64,000 bases of DNA from Sanghuangporus weigelae (taxonomy: Eukaryota; Basidiomycota; Agaricomycetes; Hymenochaetales; Hymenochaetaceae), in contig CP137326.1 of assembly GCA_033182465.1 (NCBI GenBank), positions 1,953,501 through 2,017,500 on the forward strand, given 5' to 3'. Shown here one piece after another: positions 11,437 to 36,645 of the stretch. The position numbers and the translations under genes are program-made. A model generated the notes under the pieces. The model made no database searches, was not told where the DNA came from, and saw only the letters and a list, made by a program, of their open reading frames with translations. Each line of letters starts with the position of its first letter. Position 1 is the stretch's first letter.

Positions 11437-12231
11437 TCACATGTTGACTAGTGCGTCGATCACTTCAATGGATGGCTGGAATCTTGCACCGTCGCTCCAG
11501 CAAGTAGAAGGTGATGAATCTTTCAGTAGTTCGATTGATGTCCTTGCAGCTTCGCCAACGTGATCGACCCATGTTGATAAGTTTGCATGCTGCATCGAGA
11601 CTGATTGGAAAGTTGAGAAAAGCGAGGGAGACCTCACGTTGCCTATGGTCGAGTGCCACTCTGAAGCGAACGTATCTGAAACAAACCATACAATGAATAA
11701 CAAATAATGCCAAGACGGTATCATGAAACACCTTTGACAGGGCCAGATCCAGAGAAACCAATCAAACCAAGTCCTAAAGTCACTAGAGCTGGAACCAATA
11801 TATGGGTAGTTGCACCGATTGCAATAGCTTTCATAGTTTTTTCGACTTTCTCTTGCTCGGCTAGATGCAATGGCATGAAAAAAAAGCCTGTTTTTTTTTA
11901 TTATTATCTAGAAATTACCTCGATGAATTTGGTCTTGAGTCGACCAAGTTAATGAAGTAAATAATTTAGAAGATTATATTTCCTTACCCTCTAGTTGTAG
12001 CAAACACGCCTGCAGCCTCGGCCAGGTCCAGTCCCAAGGTTCCTCGGTGATGGTCTCGAGTAAGTCACTGCAACGACGTGTACAAGCCCTCACAGGAATG
12101 GAAAGTCGATTGAGAGCTCTCGCACCACGCCCTGCTTCTTCAATGTTGTTTTCTTCAAAGAAGGCATTGACCACAAAGATCCATTCCTCCACACTTTGTC
12201 CGTCTCCGCTGAAGATGAAGGGTTCAGCCAT
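11437..12231 (-). CDS. gag-like/ISG12-like fusion family, copy 1 (type I, looks whole)
   Basis: Exons 11988-12231, 11919-11933 (15-nt microexon), 11732-11860 and 11437-11675 give 627 nt, 208 aa, with the same phases as the other copies. Residues 1-82 (MAEPFIFSGDGQSVEEWI, FFEENNIEE, IPVRACTRRC, EPWDWTWPRLQACLLQLEG) form a helical domain recalling a capsid/gag fold. The second half has AIAIGATTHILVPALVTL and GLIGFSGSGPVKG, then FASEWHSTIGNVRSPSLFST, which aligns with the ISG12/IFI6-27 pattern better seen in copy 4. It ends in SPSTCWSDGARFQPSIEVID. A hydrophobic segment of about 20 residues suggests membrane insertion. The function in fungi is unknown; in animals ISG12 proteins act at mitochondria and other membranes in cell death and immunity. 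That link is an inference from similarity. Confidence 0.72.
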
Positions 12232-12654
12232 CGGGGCGTTTCAGGCAAGTGGAGTAAAAAAACACTTGAGTGTGTGAGGAGGGGTATGAAGCAACAATTG
12301 GCACAGCTATAATAAAGCCAGAATCAGGGACAATGTCAAAGTTAGCTCAAGCTCTAGAATGAGTAGGTTTGCAGTCTGAACCGCCGAAGTCACGGTCCAA
12401 AATGACTTCGAAGCATAGAATATAGGGGCTAAGTGGAGCAAGATGGTCAGTTCGGAGGCATGGCAAGTGGTGATTGTAGCATCCAAAGGGATTAGTCAAG
12501 AGATCAAGCAGTCATAATTCGGTTTCCGAATCAGAGTTGCCACATTGTAAACATGAGGAGCGCACATGATGAGTGCACATTAAGCAGTTGATACGTAGGA
12601 ATCAAATACGGAACCTGAACTCAAAGTATACGTGCTTGTTTCTAGATCGAGTTC

Positions 12655-13044
12655 CTAATTTTGCAATGGATGGCTACTCCGAAGCACCGTACGTGGAAGC
12701 GTAGAAGATAGCTTAAGAATGGAAGATGCCATAGGCATTTCGCGAGACCTGATAGAAGCTAAATCATCCCGCAAGGTGTCGATGATAGATAGACCAGCAA
12801 GGTGGCACCGGAGAATCTGGGTCAAGGTCAATGCGGCAGCTCGTCCAAAGTGTTCACAAAAACGGAGATCCCCCTTAACGAAACCGAGAAAAGAGTTCGA
12901 GGACATGTTCAGGCGGAATGCATGCAGTGGCGTAGAGTTATTTGGTAGCACCCGAAGGATCCAGCTTGGAAAATTCGCTGCGTAACTAAGATTGACAGGA
13001 TCTAGAAACGGAAAGGTTGTCGCAACGTCAAGCCTATCGTACAC
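12655..13044 (-). CDS. hypothetical ORF within duplicated unit 1
   Basis: 129 codons directly downstream of copy 2 on the same strand (YDRLDVATTFPFLDPVNLSYA...). A partial counterpart follows copy 4 at about 21270-21450 (YNRLEVEKTLLALDPVNISYA) but has a stop after about 45 codons. DPVN.SYA is the best-conserved part. It could be a small gene, a lost C-terminal extension of the copy 2/copy 4 genes, or chance ORF in a duplicated 3' region. No family recognised. Confidence 0.25.
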   Translation of the reverse strand: MYDRLDVATTFPFLDPVNLSYAANFPSWILRVLPNNSTPLHAFRLNMSSNSFLGFVKGDLRFCEHFGRAAALTLTQILRCHLAGLSIIDTLRDDLASIRSREMPMASSILKLSSTLPRTVLRSSHPLQN

Positions 13045-13049
13045 AAGCC

Positions 13050-13838
13050 TCTTACAGACGCTTTAGCGAGCAAGGCCTTGACCATCGTTACAGAAGGTTG
13101 AAAGTTGCCACTATCGTCCCGACACACCGAAGGTGGCTTTGAGTTCCTGAATTGCACTAACAACAAGGCCACCACTCCAATTAGGCCAGTAGCCATCGCC
13201 ATTACGCCAGCGCCACTCATCGCAGAAGATGGCAGAACATGAAGAGCTAAGTGGCAGTGTAGAAGGATTGAACCCCAGCAGCAATGGAACCTAAGTGATT
13301 TGTCAGAGAGTGGCTCAGAAAGACAGGATATATGAATGATGTCTGCAACAGGACTTACGGCGAAAAATGCGATTGCTCCAAGCCTGGTTTCCAAAAACGC
13401 AGGTCCAGCGATACAAGCTAATGCATACACGGAAGCTATTTCTTAGCCTTTAGAAATACATCGCTTGCGGCTGAATCGCAAAGCATTAGAACTTCTCCTT
13501 TCATGGAGTAATTGTTGGAGTTAGACGCACAGATTCCGCCTCGATGAACTTGTTCTTCATGGATCTTAATTTAGCAACGGAATGTCAGTGACATTACCTT
13601 CCATACATAATAAAGTTCAGCATATTCCAGTTGCTCCGCTGGGGCTTCTCCATTACCTCCTCAAAAACAGGCCGGTACACCCCGGATACAAGTCTGCACC
13701 TGCTCGGAAATCCAGCTGTGAGCATGCGAAGCTACCCTTCTTTTGGGATTCCATTCGCAGCGAAGATTTCTTCGCCTCCCTTATCCGTGTTTGTGCATCA
13801 GATTCATCGCCTCCGTCAAAGATACGGGTTTATCCGTC
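13050..13838 (-). pseudogene. gag-like/ISG12-like family, copy 2 (type II, decayed)
   Basis: Aligns base by base in many places with copy 4 (21454-22270) but is broken. The start ATG equivalent reads ATA (before CGTATCTTTGACGGAGGC at about 13.83 kb). The gag-like exon has lost frame after DAQTRIREAKK and holds stops near its end. The ISG12-like part has a stop after AKK at the exon 3 start and another after GSIAAGVQSFYTAT. Intron landmarks survive: the 24-nt microexon with EQVHRGGI, a GTGCGT donor, a GATTCAG acceptor and the final CACTTAG acceptor. The C-terminal SGNFQPSVTMVKALL motif is still readable. It is the unit 1 partner of intact copy 4. Confidence 0.7.
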
Positions 13839-13879
13839 TGTGTAATAAAAGTGGTTGCTTGAGAGATGCAAGTCTCGTC

Positions 13880-14609
13880 CGCTGAAGACATGTCATGTTA
13901 AGACCCACTCCCATGCGACGCGACCATAAGGAGCGAGATATGAGAATAGAGTGAGCACTGAGCTTTGACAGTGTCTGAAATTTTATCATAGGCCTCGAAA
14001 GCACATCTAGGTGGCTAACAGGCACTGCCCATGAGCGTCAAGTTGGGGGCCGAACCACACTCCGTGATTTGAAATGGGTTGAAAGCCGGCATTTATTGAT
14101 AGCAGAAGGAAATAACGACACCACGAGGTAAAACACGGCGCAAAACTGTACGGAGAACGAGCATCGCATTTGCCCGAACTTGATGAGGCGAGCCAGGACA
14201 AGTTTAAGTTAAAAGTCGGACGCTGTGGGAACAAATTAGAAATCACCAAACTCAAACTACGGAATTTAGGGCCGGGTCTGTCCAATGAAAACTCTTGTCC
14301 CGGTCGTGAATAGTATGAACTCAGGCGCGCATTCGGGATAAATAATTCCCAACGTGAAGTTGGAGAGATGTTAACTCGGTTCGTGTCTGGCAAGTTTCTT
14401 TCTTGTTAATGCCTCGTCTCCGTGAAGGCTCCAGTCCGTTTCGAGAAGTAAACGGCGAGCCTCTGCTGATCGTGCATTTCTTCATCTTCATTGCCTTCTT
14501 GATATCAAAAAGCAGTGCTCGTCGTGCTCATTGAATCATAGCATTTTGTTCAAGATGAGTCACGCATCACATCAAGTTCAATCCTTAGACGCATAGCTCT
14601 ATGTCACTG
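13880..14609. other. intergenic between duplicated units
   Basis: The first half aligns with sequence upstream of copy 4 (about 22300-22900), so it is the common upstream flank of the type II genes. No gene recognised; an ORF at 14007-14393 (minus) has no motif. Confidence 0.5.
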
Positions 14610-15294
14610 GACCTCCATCCACAGTTCTTCGAAATGCCGACACTAATCCCTCGACTATATTAGAAATACAACGGCAAATGCATACATTCATTTGTCCGAT
14701 ACGTGGTCCGCTGAGACCACACTACTATTTCTCAAGATAAAAGAACAGTTAAGGTTGCTCAAGCGGGCGTGTATTATTCATGCATGCAATTGCGATAATG
14801 CGTTCATTGTCTAATACGGAGCAAAAGATGGACTGGACTGATGAGAGACCTAACACTTTATTCAATTTAATCACTTTGTTGCATCATACACATAAAAGTA
14901 AACATTACTTCAATAGAATGCAAGACTGCCGGTTAACGATTCGCATATTGGAGGTGGCTAAATAAAATTCCCCTTATAAATGCAATCTTCCTTTCACAAG
15001 TTGACCAACGCCTCAAGTACATCGATAGACGGCCGAAAGCTTTCTCCATCGTCCCAGCTAGCAGAAGGTGATGAATTTACCACTGAACCAAGAGATTCTG
15101 CAGCAGTGGTGCCAACTCGTTCGACCCATGTTGATATGTTTGACGCACGCATAGAGAATGATTGGCATTCTGCAAAAAGTGAGCGAGAGTGCACATTGCC
15201 AATGCTAGACTGCATTTTTGAAGCAAACGATCCTGAATTAAGTAGTACGATCAATAGTAATCAGGCTAAGAAAAAACTATGAAGAATTACGTCT

Positions 15295-15299
15295 AACTG
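15295..15299. repeat. Copia target-site duplication, left copy
   Basis: AACTG next to the 5' LTR; the same five bases follow the 3' LTR at 20244-20248. Confidence 0.85.
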
Positions 15300-15501
15300 T
15301 GTTAAGAATATATCATCGTTATCGTTGTGATCGTCAGATTTGAGTTCGGACTGTTTTTCCTTTTCTATTTTCTTTATAAACGACCAGCCGCTTGTTATAA
15401 CACCTGAGTCTTCTACTATATTCATCAGACTGAGGTGAGGCGTCTTTTACCATTCCGGACAGTATTATATCCTTACATTCGTTTGTAGCACATTCTCAAT
15501 A
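15300..15501 (+). repeat. Copia 5' LTR
   Basis: 202 bp, starting TGTTAAGAATATATC and ending TTCTCAATA. It appears identical to the 3' LTR by eye. Confidence 0.93.
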
Positions 15502-15512
15502 GGTTATGAGCC
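15502..15512 (+). other. Copia primer binding site
   Basis: GGTTATGAGCC abuts the 5' LTR. Its reverse complement GGCTCATAACC matches the anticodon arm of initiator tRNA-Met, as expected for Copia elements that prime from a half-tRNA. Confidence 0.7.
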
Positions 15513-18500
15513 TTGGGCCGGCCGCTGAACGAACGCCATAGATAGAACACGTTTATGCCCATATACACTAGACATCAGAGGGAATCAAATAACGACCCAC
15601 TCCCCGCTTTAGACCTAGACCCGTGGTTATCCAATACAGATCGATTCCAACCTAGAGCATCGTACTCAGTAGGATCTTCGGTGGCACAGACTCCATCTTC
15701 TCTCAGCTCTCTTACAACACTTCCAAGCAACATGTCAGCCCGTCAATCCAGAACCCACTCTGCGTCTCCCCCCCCAGATACCAATCCAGAACAAGCACAT
15801 ATATCGCCGGTTCCTAGCCGTGAGTCTCTTGAGGATCTTGCTAGTCAGCCCATTCCCCAACCATCACAATCGCAAAACCGGCCCAACTCTGCCCGGTCTC
15901 CCGAACTTGACACGGAGACCCTCTTCCAAAGGTTTAATCAAGAATTCTCTCTAGTTCCCGTGGCTAAGACTCCTACCGTCGAGACTAAGATCAAGCAACC
16001 TTGGGAATACCGTGTCAAGGAGTTCTCCGATTCCAACCACCTGAAACCAGACGGCTCAAACTTCATCTCTTGGAAGAAAGTGCAACTAGTGATTCTCAGA
16101 ACTCACAAGTGGATTTCTCATGCCGAAGGCTCGTCTATCCCTCCCTCTGATGTCACCAGTAAAGCATATGATGTCTGGCAAACTGTGGACAACTTGACGA
16201 CTTCTCAGATTGCGATGAACATGGACTTCGATCTCTATGGTGAGCTTGGTGATGAATTGGACTCTGCTGCCGAACTCTGGAGAGCGATCAATTCCCGATT
16301 TTCAAAGAAGACCTCTGCTGCGCGTTCTACTTCAAAGCTGAATCTGGATAGTAAAAGGATTCAGCCAGGTGAGAAGATGAAGGACCATATAAAGACACTT
16401 CGAAATCTGAAAGCTCAGTACATCAACTGCGGTGGCAAGATGGACAATGACGATTGGCATACCACTATCATTAATTCGCTATCAGACCATGAACAGTGGA
16501 AATCCTTGGCTGTCTTCGGGCACTCTCTACCCCTCCCAGACCAGATGATTGCATTCCTTGAAGACCAGGATGCACGCGGTTATGCAAAACCGTCTAAATC
16601 TGAGGCTGCTCTTCAAACGAGACCCCAACCTCGTCCTCGCTTCCGTATCCGATGCCCTAATTGTAACCGTACCGGTCACTCTCTACAAGACTGCTGGGCT
16701 CCAGGGGGGGGGTGCAACTAGTAGGCGCCCGCAGAACTATCGGATGCTGCCTGACTTTGCTCAGCGAGAACACGCCAACATTAGCGCTCAAATAGCTGCT
16801 TTAGAAAGACAAAGGGCTAACCTTTACGTCCCGGCATCTCCTCGAGGTGACGACTTCGAAACGGCAAGAGTGACAATTCAACACCGCATAGGTGACGCTG
16901 CCATGATAGCCAACAACGTTGGTCTATCGCGCGAATCCTGGGTGTTCGACTCTGGAGCAACGTCGCACATGACGAACGATAGAAGCAATTTCACATCCTA
17001 TGAAGAGATTCAGCCAATACCAATCTCTACAGCCCATGACCGTGCGCAGCTCCTGTGGGGAGTTGGAAGAGGAACGGTATTGGGATCATTCGAGTACAAT
17101 GGAGAAATTACTGTCGTACCTGTAAAGGACGTCTTGTACGTCCCAAATGTCTCCATCAACCTTCTGTCACTTCTTCAATTGCACCGGAAAGGAATTCGCA
17201 TCTTCTCAGATGACGAGCACATCCACTTCATGGTCAGAGGAACACCCTACGCAAGGGCCTCTGTGGTAATGAATCAGTGGATTATGGACATGTCTGTTTC
17301 TCATGAACGTGCGCACCTCGTCACTGAGAAGAATAATGTCAAACAGCCTCTCCACGTCTGGCACGAGCGACTTTCACACATTGATGCAAGACGTGTTGAA
17401 GAGATAGCTCGTGACAATCTGGCAGAAGGAATCCAATTAGCTGAGTCGGAATCCAATAATTCCTGCGAAGCATGTGTGCTGTCGAAAATGCCAGCGTTGC
17501 GAGCCGACTCGAAGGAACTTCGTGCGGTCAAACCAGGGGACATTGTCCACTCTGATCTCGAGTTCATGGGTCACAAGTCTTTCTCTGGCGCCACCATTAG
17601 CCTAAAATTCGTTGATGAGTATTCCAATTACGTCTGGTGTCATTCTATTCAAGATAAAAGTGCACATACCATCCTATCATTCTGGAAAGCGCTATGTAAT
17701 TCCCTTAAAACCCAACATTCCGTCACTGTCAAAGCTCTTCACTCGGACAATGGAGCTGAATTCGTCAACCATGCTATGGATGAGTTCAATCAACAACACG
17801 GTATTACCCACCATCTTACCGTACCATTTCGACACGAGATGAATGGCAGAGCGGAACGAATGAACAGAACAGGATCAAATGCAGTACGAGCCATGCTCCA
17901 ATTTGCAGATCTCCCACCGATTTATTGGGCCGAAGCATACGATACCTTCATTTACATCCATAACCGATGTGGCAGATCACACCGAGGGAACGCCACCCCA
18001 TACGAAGTCCTACATGGAACTAAACCCACCATTGATCACATCAGAACCTTCGGATCTCCGGGTTATGTCCATGTTGTACCTGAAAAGCGGAGGAAGCTCG
18101 ACGCAAAGGCGACAAAGTTAATATTGGTGGGGTACCGAGACAATGCGGCTTACAGAATGATTGACCCCAACACGAAGAAAATTTCTTACTCTCGTGATGT
18201 CATTTTTGATGAATTCCGTTCTTTTCGAGTAAATGATCTTCAAGTCAATTCAAACTCAGCTACTTCGTCGATCTCTTCTGCCACTCCTCCTTTACCTCTT
18301 CGCTCCTCTTCTCGAGTCCCAAAAATGACTGGCAAAGCCATAGCGAGTGCAGAACAGCACAAGTCCTTGTCATTCCTTGATAGAGCTCCCCAAAAGGACG
18401 AACGCTTATATTCCACTACATCACTCGGAAACATCTCCATCCCCAGGTCTGCTCATGAAGCTCTCGTCTCCGATCAGTCCAATGAGTGGCATGCGGCCAT

Positions 18501-20031
18501 GTTGTACGAAATCGCAAAGCTTGATCAGATGGACGTGTGGGATGTTGTCGAGAAGCCAGATGATTTACATGTAATCAAAGGCATGTGGGTGTTCTCTCTC
18601 AAAGAACAAGCTGATGGGACTCTTGAGTTTCGAGCGCGTTGGGTTGCTCGTGGTGATTCACAAGTTCCTGGACTTGAGTTTGGCGAAACTTTTGCTGCCT
18701 CTGGGGACTTCATCTCAGCTCGGTTCGTGTGTGCCCTAAGCTGCCAAGAACACACTCAGCTTGTTACTTTGGACATAAGCTCCGCTTACCTTCACAGTCC
18801 TTTGATCAAATCTGATCTCGTTGTCGAATACCCGACCGGCTTCTCTGTCCCCAACCTGATCCACCCTTGTTGCCACCTGAAGAAAGCTCTGTATGGTCTC
18901 AGGCAAGGTGCTAGGGCCTGGGCTGATCACTTCACTGCCAAATTAAGTGACATTGGATTCGAAAGATGCATTTCCGCACCGACCGTTTACATTCGTTCAG
19001 ACAGCGAGGGGGGCAGGACAATTATGTCCACTCATGTCGATGACTGTACAGCTGCACCGATGTCTTTGACACTGTCTGGACCGAACTCTGCTGACTGTCT
19101 GAGAACCGACATCAGGAAACACTTCGACTTCAAAGAGAAGGACCCAAGAGCCGGTGCAAACACACTAGGACTCACACTCAAGTACGATGAAATCAATGGG
19201 GCAGTAAAGCTGACATTAGCACAGAAGATAGAATGAGCGGTGGAAAGATATGGAATGAAGAATGCGCATACGGCACGTACACCGATGGCTCAAGATGCGC
19301 TGAACACGTTCGCCACTGATGATCTGCCTGCCGAAGCCAATCCCCCATGGCCATATGCACAACTTGTTGGAGAACTACTTTGGTTCGCGACGGTCTTGCG
19401 CGTGGACATCTGTTTCTCGGTCAACATGCTAGCTAGGTACCTTCAAAAACCGACTAGAACTCACTGGGAAGCGGCGCTACGTGTACTGAGATATCTGAAG
19501 GGAACGAAAGACTTGGGGATTGTGTACGAAAGAAAGAAAGACAGGGAGCTACTGGCGTTTTCTGACTCTGACTGGGCTGGAGATGCCACTGATAGAAAAT
19601 CGATCAGTGGGTACGTCTTCATGTATGCTGGGGGTCCTATTGCTTGGAAATCGCGCAAACAAACTGTTGTCGCCAAGTCTACGGCTGAAGCAGAGTACAT
19701 ATCGGTGTCCGCTTGCGCGCAAGAAGCCATCTGGTTCCGCCATCTTATGAAAGAACTCGGAATGGATCTGACTGAAAGTCCGCTAGACATTCATGTCGAT
19801 AACCAAGCAGCAATCCTTATGACCAAGAATCCTATTTACCTGTCTAAGACGAAACATATAGACATCCCCGCACACCACATTCGAGACGAAGTTCACAAAA
19901 GGCGCATTCGTTTGGTACATGTCAACGGAAACGAAAACCCCGCCGATATCCTCACTAAACCTCTTGGTGCCACTCTACATGAACGGTGTCTGGCTTTACT
20001 TGGAATGAAATGAGTCCTACCAACGACACAA

Positions 20032-20041
20032 CGAGGGGGGG
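20032..20041 (+). other. Copia polypurine tract
   Basis: GAGGGGGGG run directly before the 3' LTR, the expected plus-strand primer. Confidence 0.75.
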
Positions 20042-20243
20042 TGTTAAGAATATATCATCGTTATCGTTGTGATCGTCAGATTTGAGTTCGGACTGTTTTT
20101 CCTTTTCTATTTTCTTTATAAACGACCAGCCGCTTGTTATAACACCTGAGTCTTCTACTATATTCATCAGACTGAGGTGAGGCGTCTTTTACCATTCCGG
20201 ACAGTATTATATCCTTACATTCGTTTGTAGCACATTCTCAATA
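20042..20243 (+). repeat. Copia 3' LTR
   Basis: 202 bp, no difference from the 5' LTR noticed in a base-by-base reading. Confidence 0.93.
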
Positions 20244-20248
20244 AACTG
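20244..20248. repeat. Copia target-site duplication, right copy
   Basis: AACTG, matching 15295-15299; host exon sequence continues at once with GTCCAGATCCAGAG. Confidence 0.85.
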
Positions 20249-21453
20249 GTCCAGATCCAGAGAAGCCTATTAATTCAAGACCTACTGCCAAGAGCGCTGG
20301 GAACAGTAAGTTTTCGGTGACACTTTTCGCGATGTCTGTAACGGTTTCCTTGATTTGATCCTTCTTGGCTAATTGCAATAACATAAAGGAGTTGTTTATC
20401 AAGTATCTTACAGAACCCACCTTGACGAATTTGATCTTTTAATAACCATATTAATATGTAAAATACATTATAATTGTTTATGCCTTCGTACCTTCAATTC
20501 TTAACAAAGCCACTTGTAGTCTCATCCAAGACCAGTCCCACGGCTTTCCGGTGATAGCTTCCAGTGGTCCACTGCAGCGCCTTATACACGCCCTTACAGG
20601 TAAGGAGAGTTGATTGAGAGCTATCGTTCGTCGCTCTGGTTCTTCGATATTGTTGTCTTCGATGAAGGTATTAATGGCCGTGATCCAAGCCTCCACAGTC
20701 TGACCGTCTTCTCCTCCAAAGATAAAAGGTTTAGTCATGAGTGTGAATCTGGCCAGTAGAGTATTTGGGGAGATTCTGTTTGAAAGGAAGTGGATGATGA
20801 GGGGGGTATGAGACGGCAACTAGGTTCAGATATAAGAAGGCACGGCCGAGAACAATGGCAAGTTTAGTTCAAGTTCTAAGCTGGGTAGGCTTGCAGTCTG
20901 GGTTCTCAAAATTGCGATGCGAAATGTCTTCGAAGCATAGAATATAGGGGCTAAGTGGATCAAGATCGGAGGCAAGGTGAGCGGACATTATAGCATCGGT
21001 AGATAAACTAAGCAGCCATAGTTCGTTTCACAGGTGCGAAGTCGCCATGCTACCGACATGAGGTATGTGACGTGGTGCGCACCAGGGTGTTATGCACAGG
21101 AATCGAGAAACAAATCCCAAGCCCAGTACGAAGGTGTCTACTTCCAGTTCCTGTTTCTGCAAAGGAATGAAGTTTCTAGAAGCAAAGTAACGAGCAGTGC
21201 TTCGATGACAGAGCGCAAAAGAATATCATCGAAGACTAGACGAAGGCCGCGATAAGGCGATTCCTCGAAAGTGTTCACATAGACGGAGATCTTTTGATAA
21301 TATTACGAAAAGAGTTCGAGGGCGTCTTCCGACGGAAGACATGCCGTAACGCACTGAAGGTTCGGGGTTGGAATAGTTTCTGCATAACTAATATTCACAG
21401 GATCTAGAGCAAGTAAGGTTTTCTCGACTTCGAGCCTATTGTACGCAAGCCTT

Positions 21454-22270
21454 CTACTGCAGCTTTAGCAAGGCCTTGATCACCGTTACAGAAGGCTGAA
21501 AGTTGGCACCATCGTCCCATAATTTCGAAGGCGGCTTCGACGTGATCGCGCCTGCAGCAAGACCGCCAGCTCCACTTACACCAGTGGCGATTGCCATTGC
21601 GCCAGCGCCACCCATAGTAAGTGATTGGCAGAACGCAAAGAGCGAGCCTGCGCCAACTGCACCTCCATAGACTGTGGATTGTATTCCAGCAGCAATAGAA
21701 CCTAGGTGATTAATTAGATCGCTAATGGGGAAGGCAAGGCACATGAACGATACCTGCGACAGGACCGATAGCAGAAAATCCGAGTGCTCCAAGCCCAGCG
21801 GTCATAAGCGCGGGTCCAGCGATACAAGCTAACGCGCCGACGGAAGCTACCTTCGCAACCTTTAAAGCTACATCTCCTGCAGCTGAATCACAAATCGTTA
21901 GAGATACCTCTCCATGAGAGTATCATTGAGCTTAGCCGCACAGATTCCGTCTCGGTGAACTTGTTCTTCAGTCGGAGAACCCAAATTAGCAGCAACGGTT
22001 CACTCAAATTTGCTCAGCCGTACCTTCCATGCGCAATAGAGCCTCTTTCAGCATACTCCAGTTCCACCCCCAAGGCTTCTCCGTTACATTCTCCATACAG
22101 GTGCCTACGCTCCGGATGCAAGCTTGCACCCGATGAGACAGGCGGCTTTGAGCATACAGAAGTCCAAATTCTTCAGAGAATTGCTTCGCGGTGAAGAAAG
22201 TCTCCACCTCCCTAATCCATGTTTGTGCGTCAGGCTCGTTGCCTCCGTCAAAGATACGCGGTTCTTTCAT
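21454..22270 (-). CDS. gag-like/ISG12-like fusion family, copy 4 (type II, looks whole)
   Basis: Exons 22024-22270, 21942-21965 (24-nt microexon), 21754-21882 and 21454-21701 sum to 648 nt, 215 aa. Residues 1-82: MKEPRIFDGGNEPDAQTWI, REVETFFTAKQFSEE, RVQACIRSVGTCMENVTEKP, WGWNWSMLKEALLRMEG, the gag-like domain. Then EQVHRDGI, and the clearest ISG12/IFI6-27-like half in the window: VGALACIAGPALMTAGLGAL, GFSAIGPVAGSIAAGIQST, VYGGAVGAGSLFAFCQS, MGGAGAMAIATGVSGAGGLA. Small residues at every third or fourth place form a glycine-zipper-like membrane segment. The tail PPSKLWDDGANFQPSVTVIK is shared with all other copies. I know of no described role for such a fusion in fungi. Family assignment of the second half is by pattern; the gag-like reading of the first half is weaker. 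Confidence 0.75.
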
Positions 22271-22904
22271 GCTTGTAGTCAGAGTGAGTGCTTGAGAGAT
22301 GAGACTCTTGTCTATCGAAGAGGGACATTATATGGAGCCGTAAGAGGTGCGGAGACTAAAGCAAGTTCTAGAAAGGTCCGAAACTTCATGCGAGGCACTG
22401 ACTGCACACCTACTAAGGCAGCCTCAAAGTACAGCCCATGGGCGTCAAGTGGATCTGAATGAAACTCTGTGTCCTAACATGGGTTGAATATGGGCGCTTA
22501 TTGATGCCAGAACGATGACACGAGTGCACGATGTAAACACGAGGCATAGTAGGCGCTGAAAGCTCTGATTGTGAGAATTAATAGACAACGAGAGTCATGC
22601 ATGCCAACCAGCTTATAATGATGAGTGACGCGAGTCGACTTGAAATTCTAAAACGCTAAAACCCCGTGAGAGTATATTGGTAATCACAGTAACTTGGACG
22701 ACGATAATCACGAATAATTAAGGCCGTGTCCAAGTCAAAAGACTTGTTCTGTGCTCGGAATGTACCATTCTCCACGCCCAGTGGACGAATTCTGGAAGAC
22801 TCGGACATTTCTTCTTCTTGGATGGTAAGTCGATATCGTTGAATCACTGCCCTCGCTTCGGAACAAAACATGCATCACACCAGATTCGATCCGAGTCCTT
22901 GGAT

Positions 22905-23575
22905 GCTATAGCTATCAACAGAAAGGAAAGAAGTTGAGTGAAGGGTAACAAATCTTTCCGCTGTCGACAAACAATTCAGTACCCATGACGACTATATTAT
23001 CAGCGACTATCGCCTTCCTCAAATGCTGACTTGACTACTCTCTTATGTACATGTAGTATGGCCTTTCCTTCTCAGTCGTACATGAATCCGAGCTTAGGTC
23101 TCTTGCTGGTGTCTCATCGGAACACCGCTTACTGTTTTCAACCGGCGACTGCGGCACTCCGATCCATAATTCCAATAAGTTCCTCGTGTACCAAGACTCC
23201 AAAGAATCTAACAACACCAAAGGTTATCACGATAGATTAAGAAGTGAGCATGTTGCTTGTGCCATTCCTATCGCTTCTCGATAGTCACCAGGATAAGTGA
23301 AATCCGTTTAGAAGAACAAAAACCAATTCAAAGGTCTGATATTCTTTTCTTTTCGTTGCTTGATTCTGAGCTCTGACCTAGAACTACAGCGAGAAAGAAG
23401 GGGTCAGAAGCAAAATAGAATGAGCCAATGTAGCTTCTAGTTCCCGAAGAGACCGGGAGCTAAACTGGAGTTCAAGTACAACATAGATTTCTGTACTGTA
23501 CAATACAAATACAATACAAGCGTCAAGAGAATAACGTACAACAGGACAGCACAACAGTAAGGAGTACATGAATTC
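22905..23575. other. intergenic, no gene recognised
   Basis: Between the end of duplicated unit 2 and the stop of the first P450. ORFs at 23031-23240 and 23384-23569 show no motif. Confidence 0.5.
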
Positions 23576-25544
23576 TTAAAATTTGAGGCTCAAGAGCGCC
23601 TTCGCATCACTTGTCATAAATGGGTGCTCTTCCTTGATCGAGCGGATGAGCGTTGCGGCTTTCTCGCTACGAGGTTTCACACTCAGTCTAAACTCCGTGG
23701 GATGACTAATAGCACCCGGTGTAAATTGGACTTTCGGTTCAAGGACCTGACCATCATCGCCGAGCGGTTTGGTTATATTGAATACAGCAAGAGTTTGTGC
23801 AATGGCGAGGAAGATTGTTGCGTCCGCGAGCTCTCGACCTGGGCAAACGCGACGCCCGAAACCGAAAGCGAGATTATGCGGGTCCATCTCGGGTGCGCGG
23901 CCATCGATGCCGAGAAAACGTTCAGGTTTGAAGGTCATTGGATCATGATGATGTTTTGGGTCATGAGTGAACCACCTGAGGAGTAATTATCAGCATACAA
24001 TTCTAGTTCGCGGAGGGACAAATCTCCGAACCATATGTTTGGAATGAGCAAGGCGCCTTTTGGGATAAAGTAACCTTCGTAGATTCCATCCTCTGTAGCC
24101 ATATGAGGAAAAGCCAATGGTCCGACCGGGTGCCATCTCAGAACTTCCTTGACAATCGCGTCTACATATGGGAGTTCTTCACGATCATCATAGTCAGGGA
24201 GACGATCGTTCCCAACGACGCGGTCAATCTCCTTTTGAGCCTTAACCTGCACCTCGGGATAGACCAGCATAGCGAGGAAGAAGCATTGCAATGCAGACAC
24301 CGTCTGTGGTTGCACCGTCATTATCATTGTTTTATGTAAATAAAGATACCATGACGACATACCGTATCGGCACCCCCAGAGTAGAGTGACTGTGCAGACC
24401 ACTTCACAATGTCCTCTTCTTCCGGATCAAGATTGCCTTTTTCGAGTATCGCAGAAGTATACGATGGTGTATGAACTCCGCCGGTCATTCGTTGCTTGAC
24501 GAACGCGTGGGGTTGTTCGACCAAACGCGTGAGAGCTCTGTTCCAGGTCGCCGCTATCCGCTTGAACGACATTCCGGGCAGCCAGCTCGGGAGATATTTC
24601 ACTAGTGACTTCATTCAGTATGCTTTGTTCAACCTGAGAACGTTCGAATGTATACTTGACGTACAGAAGGGAATCGCGTCAACAAGCCAGGCGCCGGCAA
24701 CTGCCGAGCGGGAGAAATGGTCAAGGACCTCATCTGCTAAATCGACAAGTGGATCTCGGCCACGAGATTCAATTGTGTATCCATGAGATATCTTCAGTAT
24801 AATCGCGCCCGCCGTACTGAGTCAACAAGAGCGCCGTTTCAGCTCATGTATCTGTGGCTAGAATATAGACAGGTGACATACGTTCGGATGTGCTGAAGGA
24901 GTTTATCCGGATCCTCGAGCGCACGAAGGAGAAACCGGCGTACTTCGACGTCTTGTAACTGGTTAAATTGCGAGACGGCTGCTTTGGAACCCAAGATAGC
25001 GTGGATATTCTTTCGATAGGCACGGAATCTGTCTGAGTATTGTTGGGCTACCAATGTCTTTCCCCATCCGACCCTAGGACGTTCGTGAGTAAATCACTCG
25101 GTTGTAAACAACGGGGAATATTGCCGACGCGTACATTTCGCCACCAAATATCATCCTTGGACGAGAGGAGTATTTCGAAGAGCGCTTCTCAAGCAAGTCA
25201 AAAGCGATCCGTTGGTCATTCAGGATGATCAGTGTCTGCCCAAAGGTCGTGATAGAACTGATAGGGCCTTGAAATACACGTGTATAGAAGCACTCGTTGG
25301 AAGTCATGAAGAAATGAATCACGGATAACACTTTACCGTATAAATCCTTATGTTTATACCAGTGAATCCATTCTTGCTCTCCAGGAGGGGGCAAGTCACC
25401 CAGGTTGCCGATGAACACTCTGCCTTTGGGACCTGGAGGCAGAGGTGCAGGGCTGTTTCTAGAGAGGAAGAGATACTTTACTGTATGGTAAAGCGCAAGT
25501 CCTGCCAGTGCGATATAAAGAACATTATGTACGTCGATAGTCAT
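23576..25544 (-). CDS. cytochrome P450 monooxygenase 1
   Basis: Heme-thiolate monooxygenase, probably anchored in the ER by its N-terminal segment MTIDVHNVLYIALAGLALYH. The proline-rich hinge [10 protein letters not shown] follows, then FIGNLGDLPPPGEQEWIHW. The I-helix region reads YSGGADT, the ExxR helix KEVLR, PERF motif FKPERFLG, and the heme signature [15 protein letters not shown] carries the axial Cys. Seven coding exons match the P450 at 48088-50081 intron for intron; every splice I checked, including a short-range CACTAG acceptor before KYLPSWLPG, stays in frame. It resembles O-methylsterigmatocystin-oxidoreductase-like P450s of basidiomycetes; the substrate cannot be told. No biosynthetic core gene lies nearby, so a gene cluster is not supported. 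Confidence 0.88.
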
Positions 25545-26247
25545 GGACAAGTGCGAGCTGTGTAGAGATGTGGTGGGGGTGGTAGTACAAGACAGAGGAG
25601 ATAGTGCCTTGCCAATCAACTTATGGCGGAAGCGGAAGTGAAGTCCGAGATGGCGAGTATTCCAAGTCCGGTGACAGCCAATTCGCCACTTTTTGATAAA
25701 CCTGAATTGGTCCCATGGAGAGGGACACGGAGATGCTGAATGTGGTTACTGAGTAAGATATTCTTCAAGTCTGCATTTGGCTGACATTCCTATCCTGTCG
25801 ATCGGATCGACGTTAGTAGTATAATGTAATCAATATTTACTTCCGTTTGCCAACTCGTGTACTTCGTTCCATCCGTCGTCTGCCGTGCCCGTCCGTTACA
25901 GGCGGGCTTATACACAACAAACTTTCGTGACGCAAGCAGCATTACATCTTCAGAAATCTCGGATAGCTTATGAAAGGACTTAGCATCAGATGCCTCACTA
26001 TTTCATTTCAGTTCTTCTGCCAGGTAGCAGACAAAATTGACTGGCTCGCACTATTAGTAACACGCGTCTTTCATTCAAGCTGTGGACGTCCTTTCTGAGG
26101 ATCACATCAGCAGCTGTATCCATATTGCTTACCGCGTTGTTTCTCTGTTGCACTGTCATTTATACCTGTACTTGCAAATGGCTTCATCTGGCAAGTACCA
26201 CTTCTCAACGCTGTTCAAGAGCCAGTTGGATTCTGCCATACATCCCA
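25545..26247. other. divergent promoter region between P450 1 and copy 5
   Basis: 703 bp between opposite start codons. TTTATAC at about 26158-26164 lies roughly 85 nt before the copy 5 start. No ORF with a motif. Confidence 0.45.
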
Positions 26248-27050
26248 ATGCCGACTTCCATCGCTAAGATCGAGACTTTTGCTGGGAGCAATGGACAAAG
26301 TGTAGAGAAATGGATAGACAGCATCGAAGTGTGCTCGCGGCTCGAGCAAGTCCGAGAGAACGACCGTTTTGAGTTCGCCCTTCAGTTCCTTTCGGATTCG
26401 GTGACCCAGTGCATCAGGAGCTTGACAGTTCCGCTGGAGAGGATCTCCGGAAGGACTTGGAGGTGGGATTGGATCAGGCTGAAAGTAGCTTTGCGAGGGA
26501 TAGACAGTGAGTTTACCACTCATGGTCTATTAATGGACGGCTTCACTGACTCCGCGTAATTTTCTACGAAGAGCAAATACAGAAGCACGGCCCGGGTAAT
26601 GATATCTTACCTCAGACTGGTTGGCTTATTGACTCCGTCTACAGAGCGAAGGGCAAGAAGATGGCTTAGAGTTGCTGCACTCGGCGCACTAGCAGGTGCT
26701 GCTGGTCCTTTCGCTCTGGGCCTAAGTCTCACAGCAACTGCAGTCTGCGCATTTGGAGGCGAGTCTCTCGCTTATTTTATCGTGTTCACGAAAATAATGG
26801 ACTTGCAGGATCAGTCGTGGCAGTGAATACTCCGTCTAGGCATGACATAGTGGCGGGCGCGAGAGCGGCCGCGATTGTTGAGGAGACAACTGGGAAAGCC
26901 TCCTCTTCATCTGAAGCCATCCGAACGATGTCGGACATTTTGGAGAGGACTCCATCAAATACTTGGGAGGATGCTTCGAAATTCAGGCCGTCCGTCGAGC
27001 TGGTCACGGAGCTGCTGGAAATGTTGGTCCCGAACAAGAATATCCACTGA
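26248..27050 (+). CDS. gag-like/TM fusion family, copy 5 (type III)
   Basis: Exons 26248-26506, 26572-26595 (24-nt microexon), 26645-26758 and 26809-27050 give 639 nt, 212 aa. N-terminal gag-like domain: IETFAGSNGQSVEKWIDSIE ... VTQCIRSLTVPLERISGRTW, WDWIRLKVALRGID. Then KQIQKHGPG, a single predicted membrane segment ALGALAGAAGPFALGLSLTA (ISG12-like in its small-residue pattern), and a soluble tail with ILERTPSNTWEDASKFRPS. The third intron begins GCGAGT, a GC-AG intron, supported because copies 6 and 7 have GT there at the same phase. The QS..SLFA block of copies 1-4 is absent, replaced by a charged helix. Function unknown. Confidence 0.7.
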
Positions 27051-27527
27051 CAGACTGTATTCGGAAGTGCGTGTGTGAAGTTCAAGAGAGCCCTGCTGTG
27101 TGCTTATCACCACTTGAGACTAGACGTGGTCAAGTGTTGGTAGCGGACTTCATGGAAGGGTTCTATTATGTGAACTTTCGTTCAGATGGTCTATATAACT
27201 CTCGTTACCCTCATAGTTCGAGTCCGACTCCTTGATTCGAGTAATATGCACTTTTTATTGGTTCGAACGTGATATGAAGAGAGGAAAGTGCTGGTACCCT
27301 ACCCATGCCTCGAGATCTGCAGGGTTCAAGAGGTTTTATGGTCCACGTTCTATCGATACCTTATCGCTATTCTTACAGCTCTTACGACTACAGAAGCAAT
27401 CCGACTTCTCTCCTCGTTGTCACCTCATGGAATCACTCTTCTTATACCCATCAGCTTGTTCACTTGGCGGTATCCCATTTCCTCTTCTCGCTGAGTTCTC
27501 ACAAGTAGCACTTCTTCTATTGCCAAA

Positions 27528-28312
27528 ATGTCTGTCCAGCCGATCACCTTCATCGAGACCTTCCGCGGGCGCGACGGAGAAAGCGTAGAAGAATGGATAG
27601 AGAACGTCGACACGGTCTTCTGGCTTTTGCAAATACCGGAAGAAAAAAGAGTACCGCTTCTGGCCAAACAATATCTATCGTGCGGGGTGCTGGAGTGCAT
27701 ACTTGGCGTAATTATTCCAGTCGAAAAGATATCTGGACGACGTTGGGAATGGGATTGGCCGAAAATGAAGGTTGCTTTGCGAGGGGTTGAGAGTACGTTC
27801 TTACTATTCCTTCGTTGAAAGTATTGGGCTCAACGGTATTTCAAGGACAAATAAAGACAAATAAACCAAGTAAAGCAAGAAATTTATTTCATGTCCAATA
27901 TTTCTGATTCTCTGATTTCGGATATAGATGGTAATGGCGGAAGTTGGATGAAGGCGGAGCAATCGTAGCTGTTGGGGGTCCTCTCGGACTGGGTTGGGCT
28001 CTGACGGAGACTGCGATCTGCACTCTTGCAGGTATTCTCTCCTTCAATTACTTCTTGTCTCCAACAGTGTCCTAACGAACGGATAAAATAGTCGTGGCAT
28101 GGAATAAAGCGGACACGACTGACGTGAAAGCAAAGGCGATCGCTTCAGAAGTAGGGAAAGGCAAGTTACCTCCGGGAGCTGACGAAACGATAAGGCAGGT
28201 TCGGTCGAAACCACCTTCAAAACGTTGGAAGGACGGCTACAAATTCAACCCGTCTATAGAACTGGTTATTGAGCTGCTCAAAATGATTTCTCCGGGGAAG
28301 AATACAAGGTAA
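27528..28312 (+). CDS. gag-like/TM fusion family, copy 6 (type III)
   Basis: Exons 27528-27792, 27846-27869 (24-nt microexon RQIKTNKP), about 27954-28031 and 28092-28312 give 588 nt, 195 aa. Gag-like domain: FIETFRGRDGESVEEWIENV ... GVLECILGVIIPVEKISGRR, WEWDWPKMKVALRGVE. Membrane segment: GAIVAVGGPLGLGWALTETA. Tail: PPSKRWKDGYKFNPSIELVI. Compared with copy 7, exon 3 has lost about ten bases near TGGATGAAGGC. The frame is kept only if splicing uses a distal acceptor (ATGAAG at 27953) instead of GATATAG at 27928; otherwise the copy is broken. Whether this isoform is made is unknown. Confidence 0.6.
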
Positions 28313-28735
28313 CAAAAAGAAGAGATATGTTTTGCTATGCAACGAGCTTCGCAGCATCCCATTTCCTGTGCTTCCTGGTCGCGACACGGATTTCCACTGT
28401 GTTATTATTATGCAACACCAAACCAGAACTGCCTTTGTGCATATCTACTATTATATTTCTTTACCGAGCACGACTCCTTGATTCAAGTAATATGCACAGA
28501 AGATGGTGCTGGTGCCCAAGCCATACCTCGAGATCTGCAGGCTTCAAGAGAGGAATGTGAACCACGTTTATCGATTTCTTATCACCGTCCTTACATCTCT
28601 TACGACTACAGAAGCAACTCGACTTCCTTCCTCATTGTCGCCTCATGGAATCGCTCTTCTTATACCCTTCAACTTGTTCACTTGACGGCATTGCGTTTCG
28701 TCTACTTCTTGCACACTCTGCACAAGGTCGACCAT

Positions 28736-29534
28736 ATGCCCAGACTTTCATCCGCATCCATCGAGACCTTCGAGGGATTCAGCTACCAAAGTGTAGACAA
28801 ATGGATAGACCATGTCGAAACCTATTTTTTGACCAGGTGCCCTCCGAAGGAGAAGCAGCTCTCGTTTGCATTTCAGCATCTTTCGAATTCCGTAAAAGGA
28901 TGCGTAATGAGTTTGTCGAGCCCACTTGAGAAGATTTCGGGGAGGGGTTGGGATTGGGATTGGCCTAGGCTGAAAGTTGCCTTGCGAGGGATTGAGAGTA
29001 CGTTCTGGTACCTTTGGTCCGTGCTTGAACTAATAGTATGAATAACTTTTTCAGAACAGATAAAATCAAATAATTCTGGTAATCCAAGAAGTTCGTTCTG
29101 CATCGAATTGATCTAATTCTGCGAATTTAGGCGCATATGGAGGTTGGCTGAGGGCTCTGGCAGTTGGTGCAATGGTAGCTTTGTGGGGCCCATTGGCACT
29201 GGGAATGGCCCTCACGGAAACGACAATTTGCACTATCGGAGGTACTTTTCCTTTAGAGTACTCGAGATGTCGATTCGTGGTTCTAACAGATCAAAACCTA
29301 ATAGCTGTTTTGTTGAGTATCGGAGTAGACAAGCCCGACTCCGACTCAAAGGCGAGGGCAATCGCGGCAGAAGTAGGGAAAAGCAGGCTACCTCCAGTTG
29401 CGCACGAAACGATAAGACAGATTTGGTGGAAGACTCCTTCGAAAAGCTGGGAAGATGGTCTCAAGTTTAATCCATCGATGGAATTGATAATCGAGCTGCT
29501 GAAGATGATAGCCCCGGAGAAGAATACAATATAG
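28736..29534 (+). CDS. gag-like/TM fusion family, copy 7 (type III)
   Basis: Exons 28736-28997, 29055-29078 (24-nt microexon KQIKSNNSG), 29131-29241 and 29305-29534 give 627 nt, 208 aa. Gag-like domain: SIETFEGFSYQSVDKWIDHV, SVKGCVMSLSSPLEKISGRG, WDWDWPRLKVALRGIE. Membrane segment: LAVGAMVALWGPLALGMALT. Tail helix SKARAIAAEVGKSRLPP and TPSKSWEDGLKFNPSMELII. All introns are GT-AG with the same phase 1 junctions as copies 1-6. This is the cleanest type III member and the best reference for the subgroup. Confidence 0.72.
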
Positions 29535-33936: not shown

Positions 33937-34671
33937 CCATAGAATAGGGAATGTGAAACTCACGAGGAAGCATGATCAAGCGTGTCCTATGCAATTTGTC
34001 GGCTTAGCTTACAATGCTCGAATGGGCTGCTAGCGTGCCTTTTCAGCAGACATGTACTCGATCCGCTACTTGTGCTTGTTAATTTGCCGGGCGAATTCTC
34101 GTTGGAGTTCAGCTTATCCTTCGCCCTCAACTTATAATTTATAATGTGGCATCGTCTATCCAAGAAATGTTGTTTTAAGAATAAAAATCGCTCACCAACG
34201 AGGGTTTCTGAGATGTTGCTCAGACGAGTTGGCCTTGAGAAGAGTGATGGCTAAAATTGCATGTAAAGCGAGTTCAAGAATCATTCAAGTCCGTAGTTTT
34301 CGTATTATCGGGTTGCCAACATTTCAGGGTGATCCATAGTCAAAAAGGCAGAATGAACAGCGGGACGGCATCCAAGACCGCAAACAAATTGGCAGAACGG
34401 ATTTTTGCAGATCCTGTGGCTCTTTCAAGGGGCAGTCCCGACTCTTGGCTGACCAACTAGAACAAATCGGCACTCACGAGGTGGGTAAATAACATGTTAC
34501 TTGGCAAAAATAAGCCTTCCGTCGAGGGCTCGATTGTATCCACGACTCACGAAGTAGTAGTCGAGTTGTTCAAGTTTAGCGTTACGATTGCCCATTGTGA
34601 CAAGACTGTGACATCGGTGTATCTCCCAAGTGAGCGAAAAACTGTGCAGCACTTCCGCAATTAATATCAAG
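33937..34671. other. intergenic, no gene recognised
   Basis: 3' region of the DUF6533 gene and promoter of the H15-domain gene; no motif-bearing ORF. Confidence 0.5.
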
Positions 34672-36645
34672 ATGGCCACAGAGCATACAAGTGACCCTCC
34701 AGCGAAACAGAACAACGGTCACATCGCAGACGGTCCGTCGTCGTCGTGCAAAATATTGTCAATTAAATTGTTTATTGTTCTTGCAGGGAGCATCGACCCA
34801 TCTCTTGTCGGACAGGCTGGGAGTACAGCTTCGAACGATGTGAACGCACAGAACATAAATGGGAGCCATGAACTACCCGACGACGAGAGGATACTCAAGC
34901 GAATATGGCTCACGCTCCTTCCGACGGAGCAGGTCATTGAAATATTGTTGAAGCTTGATGAGAGCCTTGCGAAGGAGGGGGCCGGTGAGGAGTATTGGAA
35001 GTCCGTGAGGGGACAGTTGTGGCCGACGGATCTGAAAGCTGCGGTGCTACATGCGGCTGTTGCGAGGATTGTCGAGTCGAGTGGGACGGCGACTGTGAAC
35101 AACAATGAGATCGCTGATGATAAGGGGAGTACGAAGGCCTTACAGACGACAAGTGCCTCGAAGAAAGACGGCGGAGCTGAGCAGAACGCTAACGGTCAGT
35201 CGACCAAAGATCCTCCATCATCGGCATCGACCTCGACGTCTGATCAAGCGACGACGACGACAAAGACACCGCACACGACTGCACCAGCGCCATCGACAAC
35301 GACGCTCGTCCCTCCTCTTATCCCCATCCGTCGCCCCTCACCTCCAACCTCGACAACGACCTACCAAGCAGCCGCCTCTGCATCAACTTCCCCCTCCTAC
35401 CCTTATCAGCCCTACTCAAGTGGGTCCATCTCCTACCAACAATCCTCTCACCACCAGCCATACTCCGCCTCCTATTCCCCCTCTCCTCCAACTGTACCCG
35501 CTCGAGTCCCTCCTCCACCTCCCACGCCAGCTCCAGTAGAAGATGAAGATGACCTACCTTCGTACGAAGAGATGCTCGTCCAAGCTTTGACGGTGCACAA
35601 TGATCCCGAGGGAACGGCGCCGAAACAGCTGTTCCAGTGGATGGCTGCTACGTACCCTCTCCAGGCGAATTTCCGCCCGAGCGCAAGCCAGGCACTTCAG
35701 AAGGCGTTTAAACGCGGTAGGTTTGAGAAGAATAGTGAGGGGAGGTATAGGTTGAATTCTCGATGGGAAGGCGGGAATGTAAGTCGTTTTATCCTCCTGT
35801 CATTTCGTTTTTTTATTGGATAAAAGACATTAATCTGATATGCTCCTTAGACCTCAAGACGAACGACCCGACGACCTCAGAGTTACTCCAAGTCAGTATT
35901 GAATCCAAGCCCCTCATCCCACCCGGCACCCAACAGCTCGCAATTCCCACCTCAGCACTACACATGGACGTACGGCGGTCGGGCCGCCACCAAAAGTCAA
36001 TCTCCTGCGCCTGTTCCTCTTTCGAGTCAGGCACCTTCTTCGACTACTGCTGCGCCTCAGATCTCGTCAACTTCTCCGATGATGCCATTTGCTGGTAAAC
36101 ACCCGCCTCCCGGGCCTGGGACTGGGGACGGTACGGACCAAGACCAGGACCGCGAGAGCCATCGCAGCTGCATGGAAGCCGCGTACAGCATCTTACAGGC
36201 GCTCAATATCACAGGTGCGAGTGGGGGTAGTAGCAATAGTACCTTCAACCTTACCACCGTTTCTGCTGAATCCACAAAAGACACGAATGCGACAGAACTC
36301 CCGGCATCAGCCTCTACAGGTACAGCTGCAGGTCCCTCGTCAGCTACTCAATTCGTCCCGATATCTACTGGAGCTCCCTCATTCCCGACAGCTATCCCCA
36401 CCTCGGTCCAAGCGAACCGGGCAGCGCTCCAGGGCTCGCTAGCACTCCTTGCCGCTCAGCTCGCAGAGCTCGCGGACACCAGCACCACCAATGCGAACGC
36501 GAACGGGCAGTTGGCCCACGCACAAGGTGCCCTTGCTGTTAGTGGCGCTATCGGCATGTCAGGCTTAGGATTCCTCGAAGGAATGGGTATCAACCTCAAC
36601 CTAGACCTGGCGCAGCTTGGGATAGAGGTTGAGCCCGCAAAGTGA
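34672..36645 (+). CDS. linker-histone (H15, H1/H5-like) domain protein
   Basis: Exons 34672-34732, 34787-35778 and 35851-36645 give 1848 nt, 615 aa. After MATEHTSDPPAKQNNG comes a helical segment PDDERILKRIWLTLLPTEQV, then a long Ser/Thr/Pro/Tyr-rich disordered stretch with a run of prolines. A winged-helix H15 domain follows: SYEEMLVQALTVHNDPEGTA, PKQLFQWMAATYPLQANFRP, SASQALQKAFKRGRFEKNSE, GRYRLN. The second half is again low complexity (SSTTAAPQ, PPGPGTGDG) with a helical ANRAALQGSLALLAAQLAEL segment. The fold binds linker DNA in histone H1, but the long disordered flanks without a Lys-rich tail make it more like a chromatin or transcription factor than a canonical H1. Nuclear location is inferred. 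Confidence 0.8.

What the first reader, a model, noticed from the sequence alone, without database searches (positions are those of the whole stretch)
11437..29534. Seven-copy family joining a gag-like domain to an ISG12/IFI6-27-like membrane segment
Seven genes or relics in 18 kb share one plan: about 80 residues of a capsid-like pattern (F.G...SVE.WI, then W.W.W..L..ALL.IEG), a 15- or 24-nt microexon, a small-residue-rich membrane segment, and a tail PS..W.DG..F.PS....I..LL. In copy 4 the membrane half (GFSAIGPVAGSIAAGIQST, VYGGAVGAGSLFAFCQS) looks like the interferon-induced ISG12 family. The similarity to ISG12 is established-family pattern matching; the gag-like reading is weaker; the idea that a captured capsid-type oligomeriser was fused to a membrane-active segment, perhaps for cell-death or defence signalling, is inference. 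I know of no described fungal system of this kind.
Basis: partly seen in the sequence, partly recalled or inferred. Interest (0 to 1): 0.85.

Follow-up and report, generated by a model that had tools for sequence, protein, structure and literature searches.

The report
Capsid-fold and ISG12 fused fungal genes
In one small stretch of a fungal genome, seven related genes or gene remains join a domain predicted to fold like a retrovirus-type capsid to a membrane segment related to the animal interferon-induced ISG12 proteins, a combination I found no earlier description of and whose function is still unproven.

Summary
Seven copies between 11437 and 29534 share one gene plan: a capsid-like exon, a 15- or 24-nt microexon with splice sites (7 of 7 copies), two membrane exons and a PS..W.D...F.PS tail, all introns phase 1. 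Four copies read through intact (c1, c4, c5, c7); c2 is split by a recent copia element, c6 is frameshifted, c3 is a relic. The ISG12 reading is confirmed for c4 (PF06140, E 6.4e-7, just over Pfam's cut-off) and c1 (E 1.2e-6, just under), not for c5 and c7. The capsid reading rests on structure only: an AlphaFold model of exon 1 (pLDDT 91.8) is a four-helix domain whose 20 best Foldseek PDB matches are all retroviral or Ty3-type capsids (dArc, Arc N-lobe, PNMA2, PEG10), though single E-values are 0.3 or worse and no decoy control was run. No sequence method linked it to gag. In searches of the 33.9-Mb genome every reproducible match lies in this cluster. Most likely it is a tandem family of membrane proteins whose single-lobe capsid-fold domain self-associates or binds partners. 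A cell-death or defence role is inference.

The parts
11437..12231 (-). copy c1, intact 208-aa gene; exons 12231-11988, 11933-11919, 11860-11732, 11675-11437
   Evidence: PF06140 E 1.2e-6, 28.8 bits against cut-off 29.1, profile 4-66 of 84
13042..13845 (-). copy c3, decayed relic; exon 1 remains near 13826, microexon 13554-13531, membrane and tail piece to about 13068
   Evidence: tblastn with c4, E 2e-24 across frameshifts and stops; microexon
14994..15230 (-). copy c2, 3' part: fourth exon (second half of the ISG12 motif and tail)
   Evidence: tblastn with c1 at 53% identity; weak PF06140 E 0.0079, under the cut-off
15300..20243 (+). copia-type LTR element inserted in c2; 202-bp LTRs identical to each other; 5-bp target duplication AACTG
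   Evidence: one search gives 203 bp because both copies happen to be preceded by G; integrase core and GAG-pre-integrase domains in 17182-18081; copia type by domain order, by eye
20244..20738 (-). copy c2, 5' part: exon 1, microexon 20435-20421, third exon up to the insertion
21454..22270 (-). copy c4, intact 215-aa gene; exons 22270-22024, 21965-21942, 21882-21754, 21701-21454
   Evidence: PF06140 E 6.4e-7, 29.6 bits against cut-off 29.1, profile 5-81 of 84
22025..22270 (-). c4 exon 1, 82-aa single-lobe capsid-fold domain (predicted)
   Evidence: AlphaFold2 pLDDT 91.8, pTM 0.78; Foldseek PDB ranks 1-20 all capsids
26248..27050 (+). copy c5, 212-aa gene; exons 26248-26506, 26572-26595, 26645-26758, 26809-27050 (GC-AG last intron)
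27528..28312 (+). copy c6, frameshifted in its third exon; exons 27528-27792, 27846-27869, 27928-28031, 28092-28312
28736..29534 (+). copy c7, 208-aa gene; exons 28736-28997, 29055-29078, 29131-29241, 29305-29534
   Evidence: exon 1 AlphaFold2 pLDDT 74.1, best PDB match Arc N-lobe at E 1.6

Best explanation
This is a tandemly expanded family of small membrane proteins, made by joining a single-lobe capsid-fold (CA-fold) domain to an ISG12-type membrane segment through phase-1 introns. Shown or well supported: the shared exon plan, the ISG12 motif in c4 and c1, the hydrophobic segment, purifying selection between the closest copies, and a predicted four-helix fold like Ty3/Arc capsid lobes. Inferred: the capsid-fold domain sits in the cytosol at the N-terminus and self-associates or binds a partner peptide; clustering then controls the ISG12 segment in a mitochondrial or other inner membrane, most likely changing membrane permeability in a stress, non-self or defence response.
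For: Phase-1 exon plan and a conserved microexon in 7 of 7 copies. PF06140 in c4 and c1 and alignment of c4 to IFI27L1 2LOQ. Capsid fold: model 1 has pLDDT 91.8, and ranks 1-20 are all capsids, 46 of the 50 rows shown out of 67 matches. A second model from the three diverged copies alone again ranks the Arc N-lobe first, with 16 of 30 rows capsids. 19-residue windows of mean hydropathy above 1.3 begin at residues 95-110 in c1, 92-123 in c4, 101-122 in c5 and 100-123 in c7. NG86 dN/dS 0.18 (YN00 0.32) for c1/c2 exon 1, 0.46 for c1/c2 exon 4, 0.26 for c5/c7 exon 1 and 0.08 for c6/c7 exon 4. Porcine ISG12A is mitochondrial, with four glycine zippers and three predicted transmembrane helices (PMC5578005, passages). 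Half-CA genes that keep only the N-lobe exist in mammals (PMC11011659, passages).
Against: No sequence link to any gag. Every Foldseek E-value is 0.3 or worse, no unrelated four-helix domain was run as a decoy, and capsid chains are common in the PDB. The viral structure library gave no strong match. c5 and c7 lack a recognisable ISG12 motif, so the membrane half is not uniformly conserved; c4/c7 exon 4 dN/dS is 1.0 (NG86) or 1.35 (YN00), and c5/c6 and c2/c6 exon 4 are 0.70 and 0.75 by NG86. Glycine-zipper-like patterns are many in c4, none in c1 by the pattern used. Of eight neighbouring ORFs scanned, four had a Pfam hit and none is a known defence gene; the rest of the window was not scanned. 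No transcript, localisation or oligomer evidence.
Confidence: 0.4

Rival explanations
1. Anti-retrotransposon decoy: the capsid-fold domain poisons or captures assembling Gag of resident LTR elements at a membrane, like yeast p22 or Drt2.
For: The genome carries at least 134 PF03732 gag matches at E 0.01 or better, many of them from one repeated family. One copy of the family was itself hit by a recent copia element. Domesticated or self-encoded Gag pieces act as restriction factors in yeast (PMC10951436, PMC8458377, PMC4599808; search listing with start of abstract). A Drt2 structure appears at rank 44.
Against: [quoted passage not shown] The membrane half has no obvious place in this model.
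Confidence: 0.15
2. The exon-1 domain is an unrelated four-helix domain that only resembles the CA fold; the genes are ordinary fungal ISG12 relatives with a private N-terminal domain.
For: All sequence tests against gag are negative. Foldseek E-values are not significant on their own, and no decoy control was run.
Against: Ranks 1-20 of the PDB search are CA folds of several different proteins, and a separate model of diverged copies agrees. Ty3 and Arc CA-NTD share only 10% identity (PMC6525542, passage), so failure of sequence methods is expected. In the intact copies exon 1 starts just before an F.G motif.
Confidence: 0.25
3. Adaptor rather than oligomeriser: as in the Arc N-lobe, the domain binds short peptides of a partner and the ISG12 segment only anchors it to a membrane.
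For: Structures titled human Arc N-lobe bound to GKAP and stargazin peptides are among the ten best matches. The family has diversified in sequence (30-62% identity in exon 1).
Against: Nothing here shows a groove or a partner.
Confidence: 0.2

Closest known systems
ISG12 / Ifi-6-16 (FAM14) family, PF06140; IFI27, IFI6, IFI27L1
   Same: c4 matches profile positions 5-81 of 84 and c1 4-66; c4 aligns to 2LOQ through the motif.
   Different: The animal proteins have no capsid-fold domain or PS..W.D tail (recalled; not tested beyond the 2LOQ alignment). c5 and c7 have no recognisable similarity.
Domesticated Ty3/metaviral capsids: Arc, dArc, PNMA (including MOAP1), PEG10, RTL half-CA genes
   Same: Predicted four-helix single CA lobe; best structural matches. 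RTL half-CA genes keep only the N-lobe (PMC11011659, passages).
   Different: Joined to a membrane segment; no room for a second lobe in exon 1; no sequence similarity to gag.
Drt2 and p22 of yeast (Ty1 Gag-derived restriction factors)
   Same: Fungal, capsid-derived (search listing; structure title).
   Different: p22 is identical to part of its target Gag (listing); this domain is unlike the resident gag domains tested.
Fungal proteins already annotated with PF06140
   Same: A Thielaviopsis punctulata protein carries Ifi-6-16 (PMC10051545, one table row).
   Different: That one is paired with Ferritin_2 in a secretome list, not with a capsid-like domain.

Membership tests
ISG12 / Ifi-6-16 (PF06140) | Profile match over the curated cut-off | tested here: met
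   Met for c4 only (29.6 against 29.1 bits); c1 just misses (28.8); c5 and c7 no hit
ISG12 / Ifi-6-16 (PF06140) | Small-residue-rich hydrophobic membrane segment with glycine zippers | tested here: inconclusive
   Hydrophobic windows in the four intact copies; zipper-like patterns many in c4, none in c1
ISG12 / Ifi-6-16 (PF06140) | Mitochondrial or ER localisation and effect on cell death | not testable with these tools
   needs cell work
Domesticated Ty3/metaviral capsid | Four-helix CA fold | tested here: met
   Predicted only; E-values individually weak, no decoy control
Domesticated Ty3/metaviral capsid | Sequence similarity to gag families | tested here: not met
Domesticated Ty3/metaviral capsid | Two lobes (CA-NTD plus CA-CTD) | tested here: not met
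   The model of exon 1 is one four-helix lobe; exons 3 and 4 are membrane segment and tail. Half-CA genes of mammals also have one lobe (PMC11011659, passages)
Domesticated Ty3/metaviral capsid | Assembly into capsid-like particles | not testable with these tools
   no oligomer prediction or experiment available

The most novel reading that the evidence does not exclude
A fungus has captured a retrotransposon capsid lobe and fused it by exon shuffling to an ISG12-type membrane effector. The result is a tandem, diversifying system in which capsid-style assembly gates membrane permeabilisation in cell death, non-self recognition or anti-element defence.
Probability: 0.22. Interest if true: 0.88.

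Novelty: new variant of a known kind. Interest (0 to 1): 0.62.

Why it matters
To my knowledge (recalled) ISG12 proteins are known mainly as interferon-induced mitochondrial proteins of animals, and domesticated single capsid lobes mainly from animals. A fungal gene family joining the two would show a new use of the capsid fold, on a membrane effector outside animals. It would also offer a genetic model, in a fungus, for what the ISG12 membrane segment does without interferon signalling.

Tried and rejected
PF06140 against the own genome rang nowhere, controls included, so it is uninformative. A weak extra match on contig C10 (E 0.03, three stops) did not reproduce with tblastn on the fetched locus at E 0.05 and was dropped. 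Viral contigs and genome contigs gave 52, 24 and 39 pattern matches, 0 confirmed. Those collections hold viral contigs and bacterial and archaeal genomes, so absence there says little about other fungi; no fungal collection was available. BFVD gave 59 matches (50 shown), none strong; the highest probability shown (0.28) was a coat protein of Rose yellow vein virus, a caulimovirid by recall. hhalign tests of exon 1 against resident gag domains were negative, 100 column-shuffled alignments included several scoring as high. In one search, with 1000 shuffles of each sequence, none of the 6 exon-1 peptides stood out (lowest count 92 of 1000, c5) and none of the 11 gag domains did (lowest 119 of 1000). 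Only 20 of the 134 gag matches were fetched. In some searches some gag readings were antisense, because loci of minus-strand hits were not turned; searches used the corrected set (11 of 20 loci kept after removing near-duplicates and short ones; L022 left out of the profile). Many dN/dS pairs were saturated or undefined. Two pieces of the LTR element were scanned: 17182-18081 gave integrase and GAG-pre-integrase, 19237-20010 gave nothing.

Paper searches that bear on a fungal ISG12 or capsid-ISG12 system showed none in their listings. They cover open-licence PMC papers only, and three listings were cut (15 of 57; 10 of 23; 20 of 87,462, only the best ranked). Searches were on MOAP1 and Ty1 restriction factors.
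Full report
What is there. The window is G000:C9:1953501-2017500 of an unnamed 33.87-Mb, 13-contig genome whose gene structure looks like that of an agaricomycete fungus (inference). Between 11437 and 29534 lie seven copies of one gene plan: c1, c3, c2 and c4 on the minus strand, c5, c6 and c7 on the plus strand, with a P450 gene between the two arrays (PF00067 in 23579-23986). c1 pairs with c2 and c3 with c4, both at about 8.4-8.5 kb spacing, which suggests a duplicated two-gene block (inference).

Gene models. c1, c4, c5 and c7 can be spliced into proteins of 208, 215, 212 and 208 aa with every intron in phase 1; splice sites were chosen partly by homology. Exon 1 has 244-265 nt (five modelled copies). 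Exon 2 is a microexon of 15 or 24 nt. Exon 3 is 129, 129, 114 and 111 nt in the four intact copies. Exon 4 carries the rest of the membrane segment and the tail PS..W.D...F.PS. The microexon with its AG and GT flanks encodes [DEKR]Q[IV] in 7 of 7 copies, including relic c3. Without splicing, exon 1 would run into short tails that differ between copies. These points make a single spliced gene the simplest reading, but no RNA evidence was available. All-phase-1, symmetric exons are what exon shuffling would leave, and they would also allow exon skipping in frame (inference).

State of the copies. c2 is cut by an LTR element whose 202-bp LTRs are identical, with a 5-bp duplication AACTG, so the insertion is recent. 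One piece of the element carries integrase and GAG-pre-integrase domains, another piece gave no hit; the copia type is read by eye from the ORF order. c6 has a frameshift in its third exon. c3 is decayed. Between close copies selection looks purifying: NG86 dN/dS 0.18 (YN00 0.32) for c1/c2 exon 1, 0.46 for c1/c2 exon 4, 0.26 for c5/c7 exon 1, 0.08 for c6/c7 exon 4 at near-saturated dS. Against this, c4/c7 exon 4 is 1.0-1.35 and c5/c6 and c2/c6 exon 4 are 0.70 and 0.75 by NG86; many pairs are undefined.

The ISG12 half. Pfam's Ifi-6-16 profile matches c4 at E 6.4e-7 (29.6 bits, cut-off 29.1) and c1 at E 1.2e-6 (28.8 bits, just under). The c2 tail piece matches weakly (E 0.0079) and the c2 third-exon piece not at all. 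phmmer against PDB sequences puts IFI27L1 (2LOQ) first for c4 at E 5e-4, with the motif aligned through. c5 and c7 gave no Pfam hit and lack about 20 columns of the motif, so in that branch only the first hydrophobic part and the tail remain. Hydrophobic 19-residue windows begin at residues 95-110 (c1), 92-123 (c4), 101-122 (c5) and 100-123 (c7), with three further windows in c4.

The capsid-like half. No sequence method ties exon 1 to gag: Pfam on whole proteins and on all six exon-1 peptides, hmmsearch of PDB sequences, hhalign, and HMM scores against 1000 shuffles of each sequence were negative. Structure tells more. AlphaFold2 on the six-sequence alignment gave pLDDT 91.8, pTM 0.78 and four helices. 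Of 67 PDB matches 50 rows are shown; 46 of these are retroviral or Ty3-type capsid domains and ranks 1-20 all are, led by dArc1 (probability 0.96, TM 0.67), Arc N-lobe, dArc2, PNMA2 and PEG10. A separate model from c7, c5 and c6 alone (pLDDT 74.1) again has the Arc N-lobe at rank 1 and 16 capsids in 30 rows. Single E-values are 0.3 or worse, and I ran no decoy domain, so the case rests on consistency across many different entries. The viral library gave no strong match. Ty3 and Arc themselves share 10% identity in this domain, and each CA lobe has a four-helix core (PMC6525542, passages).

Extent. Searches of the whole genome with c4, c7 and c1 gave 13, 12 and 14 matches; 38 of these 39 lie in this cluster, and the other, weak, did not reproduce. 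That tool scores only its best candidates, so the counts are lower bounds. No fungal collection was available, so the spread of the fusion among other fungi is unknown.

How it may work. Porcine ISG12A is mitochondrial, with three predicted transmembrane helices and glycine zippers, and that paper links ISG12A to apoptosis (PMC5578005, passages). MOAP1, a PNMA capsid relative, is linked to apoptosis too (PMC11011659, passages). By analogy only, I think the N-terminal lobe clusters or recruits these proteins and the ISG12 segment acts on a membrane. Rivals are a Gag decoy against retrotransposons, a peptide-binding adaptor, and a chance fold resemblance; their evidence is set out in the Rival explanations section.

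Verdict. The fusion of a capsid-like fold with ISG12 is likely for c1 and c4 and reduced in c5 and c7; the function is open. I found no description of such a system in eight searches of the open-licence library, seen as listings, three of them cut.

Noticed in passing
15300-20243: Recent copia-type LTR element with identical 202-bp LTRs and 5-bp target duplication, inserted in the third exon of c2 near its splice donor.
   Followed up: partly
28313-29041 and 26041-26559, + strand: Long open frames extend upstream of exon 1 of c7 and c5 and include hydrophobic stretches; the conserved starts just before the F.G motif argue against their being coding.
   Followed up: no
29242-29304: The last intron of c7 is 63 nt and open in frame, so retaining it would add 21 residues to the membrane region.
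   Followed up: no
26759-26808: The last intron of c5 needs a GC-AG splice pair.
   Followed up: no
746-1603; 52476-53342; 34612-35823: Other window genes by Pfam: pyridoxamine phosphate oxidase, cyclopropane synthetase (CMAS), a linker-histone-domain protein.
   Followed up: no
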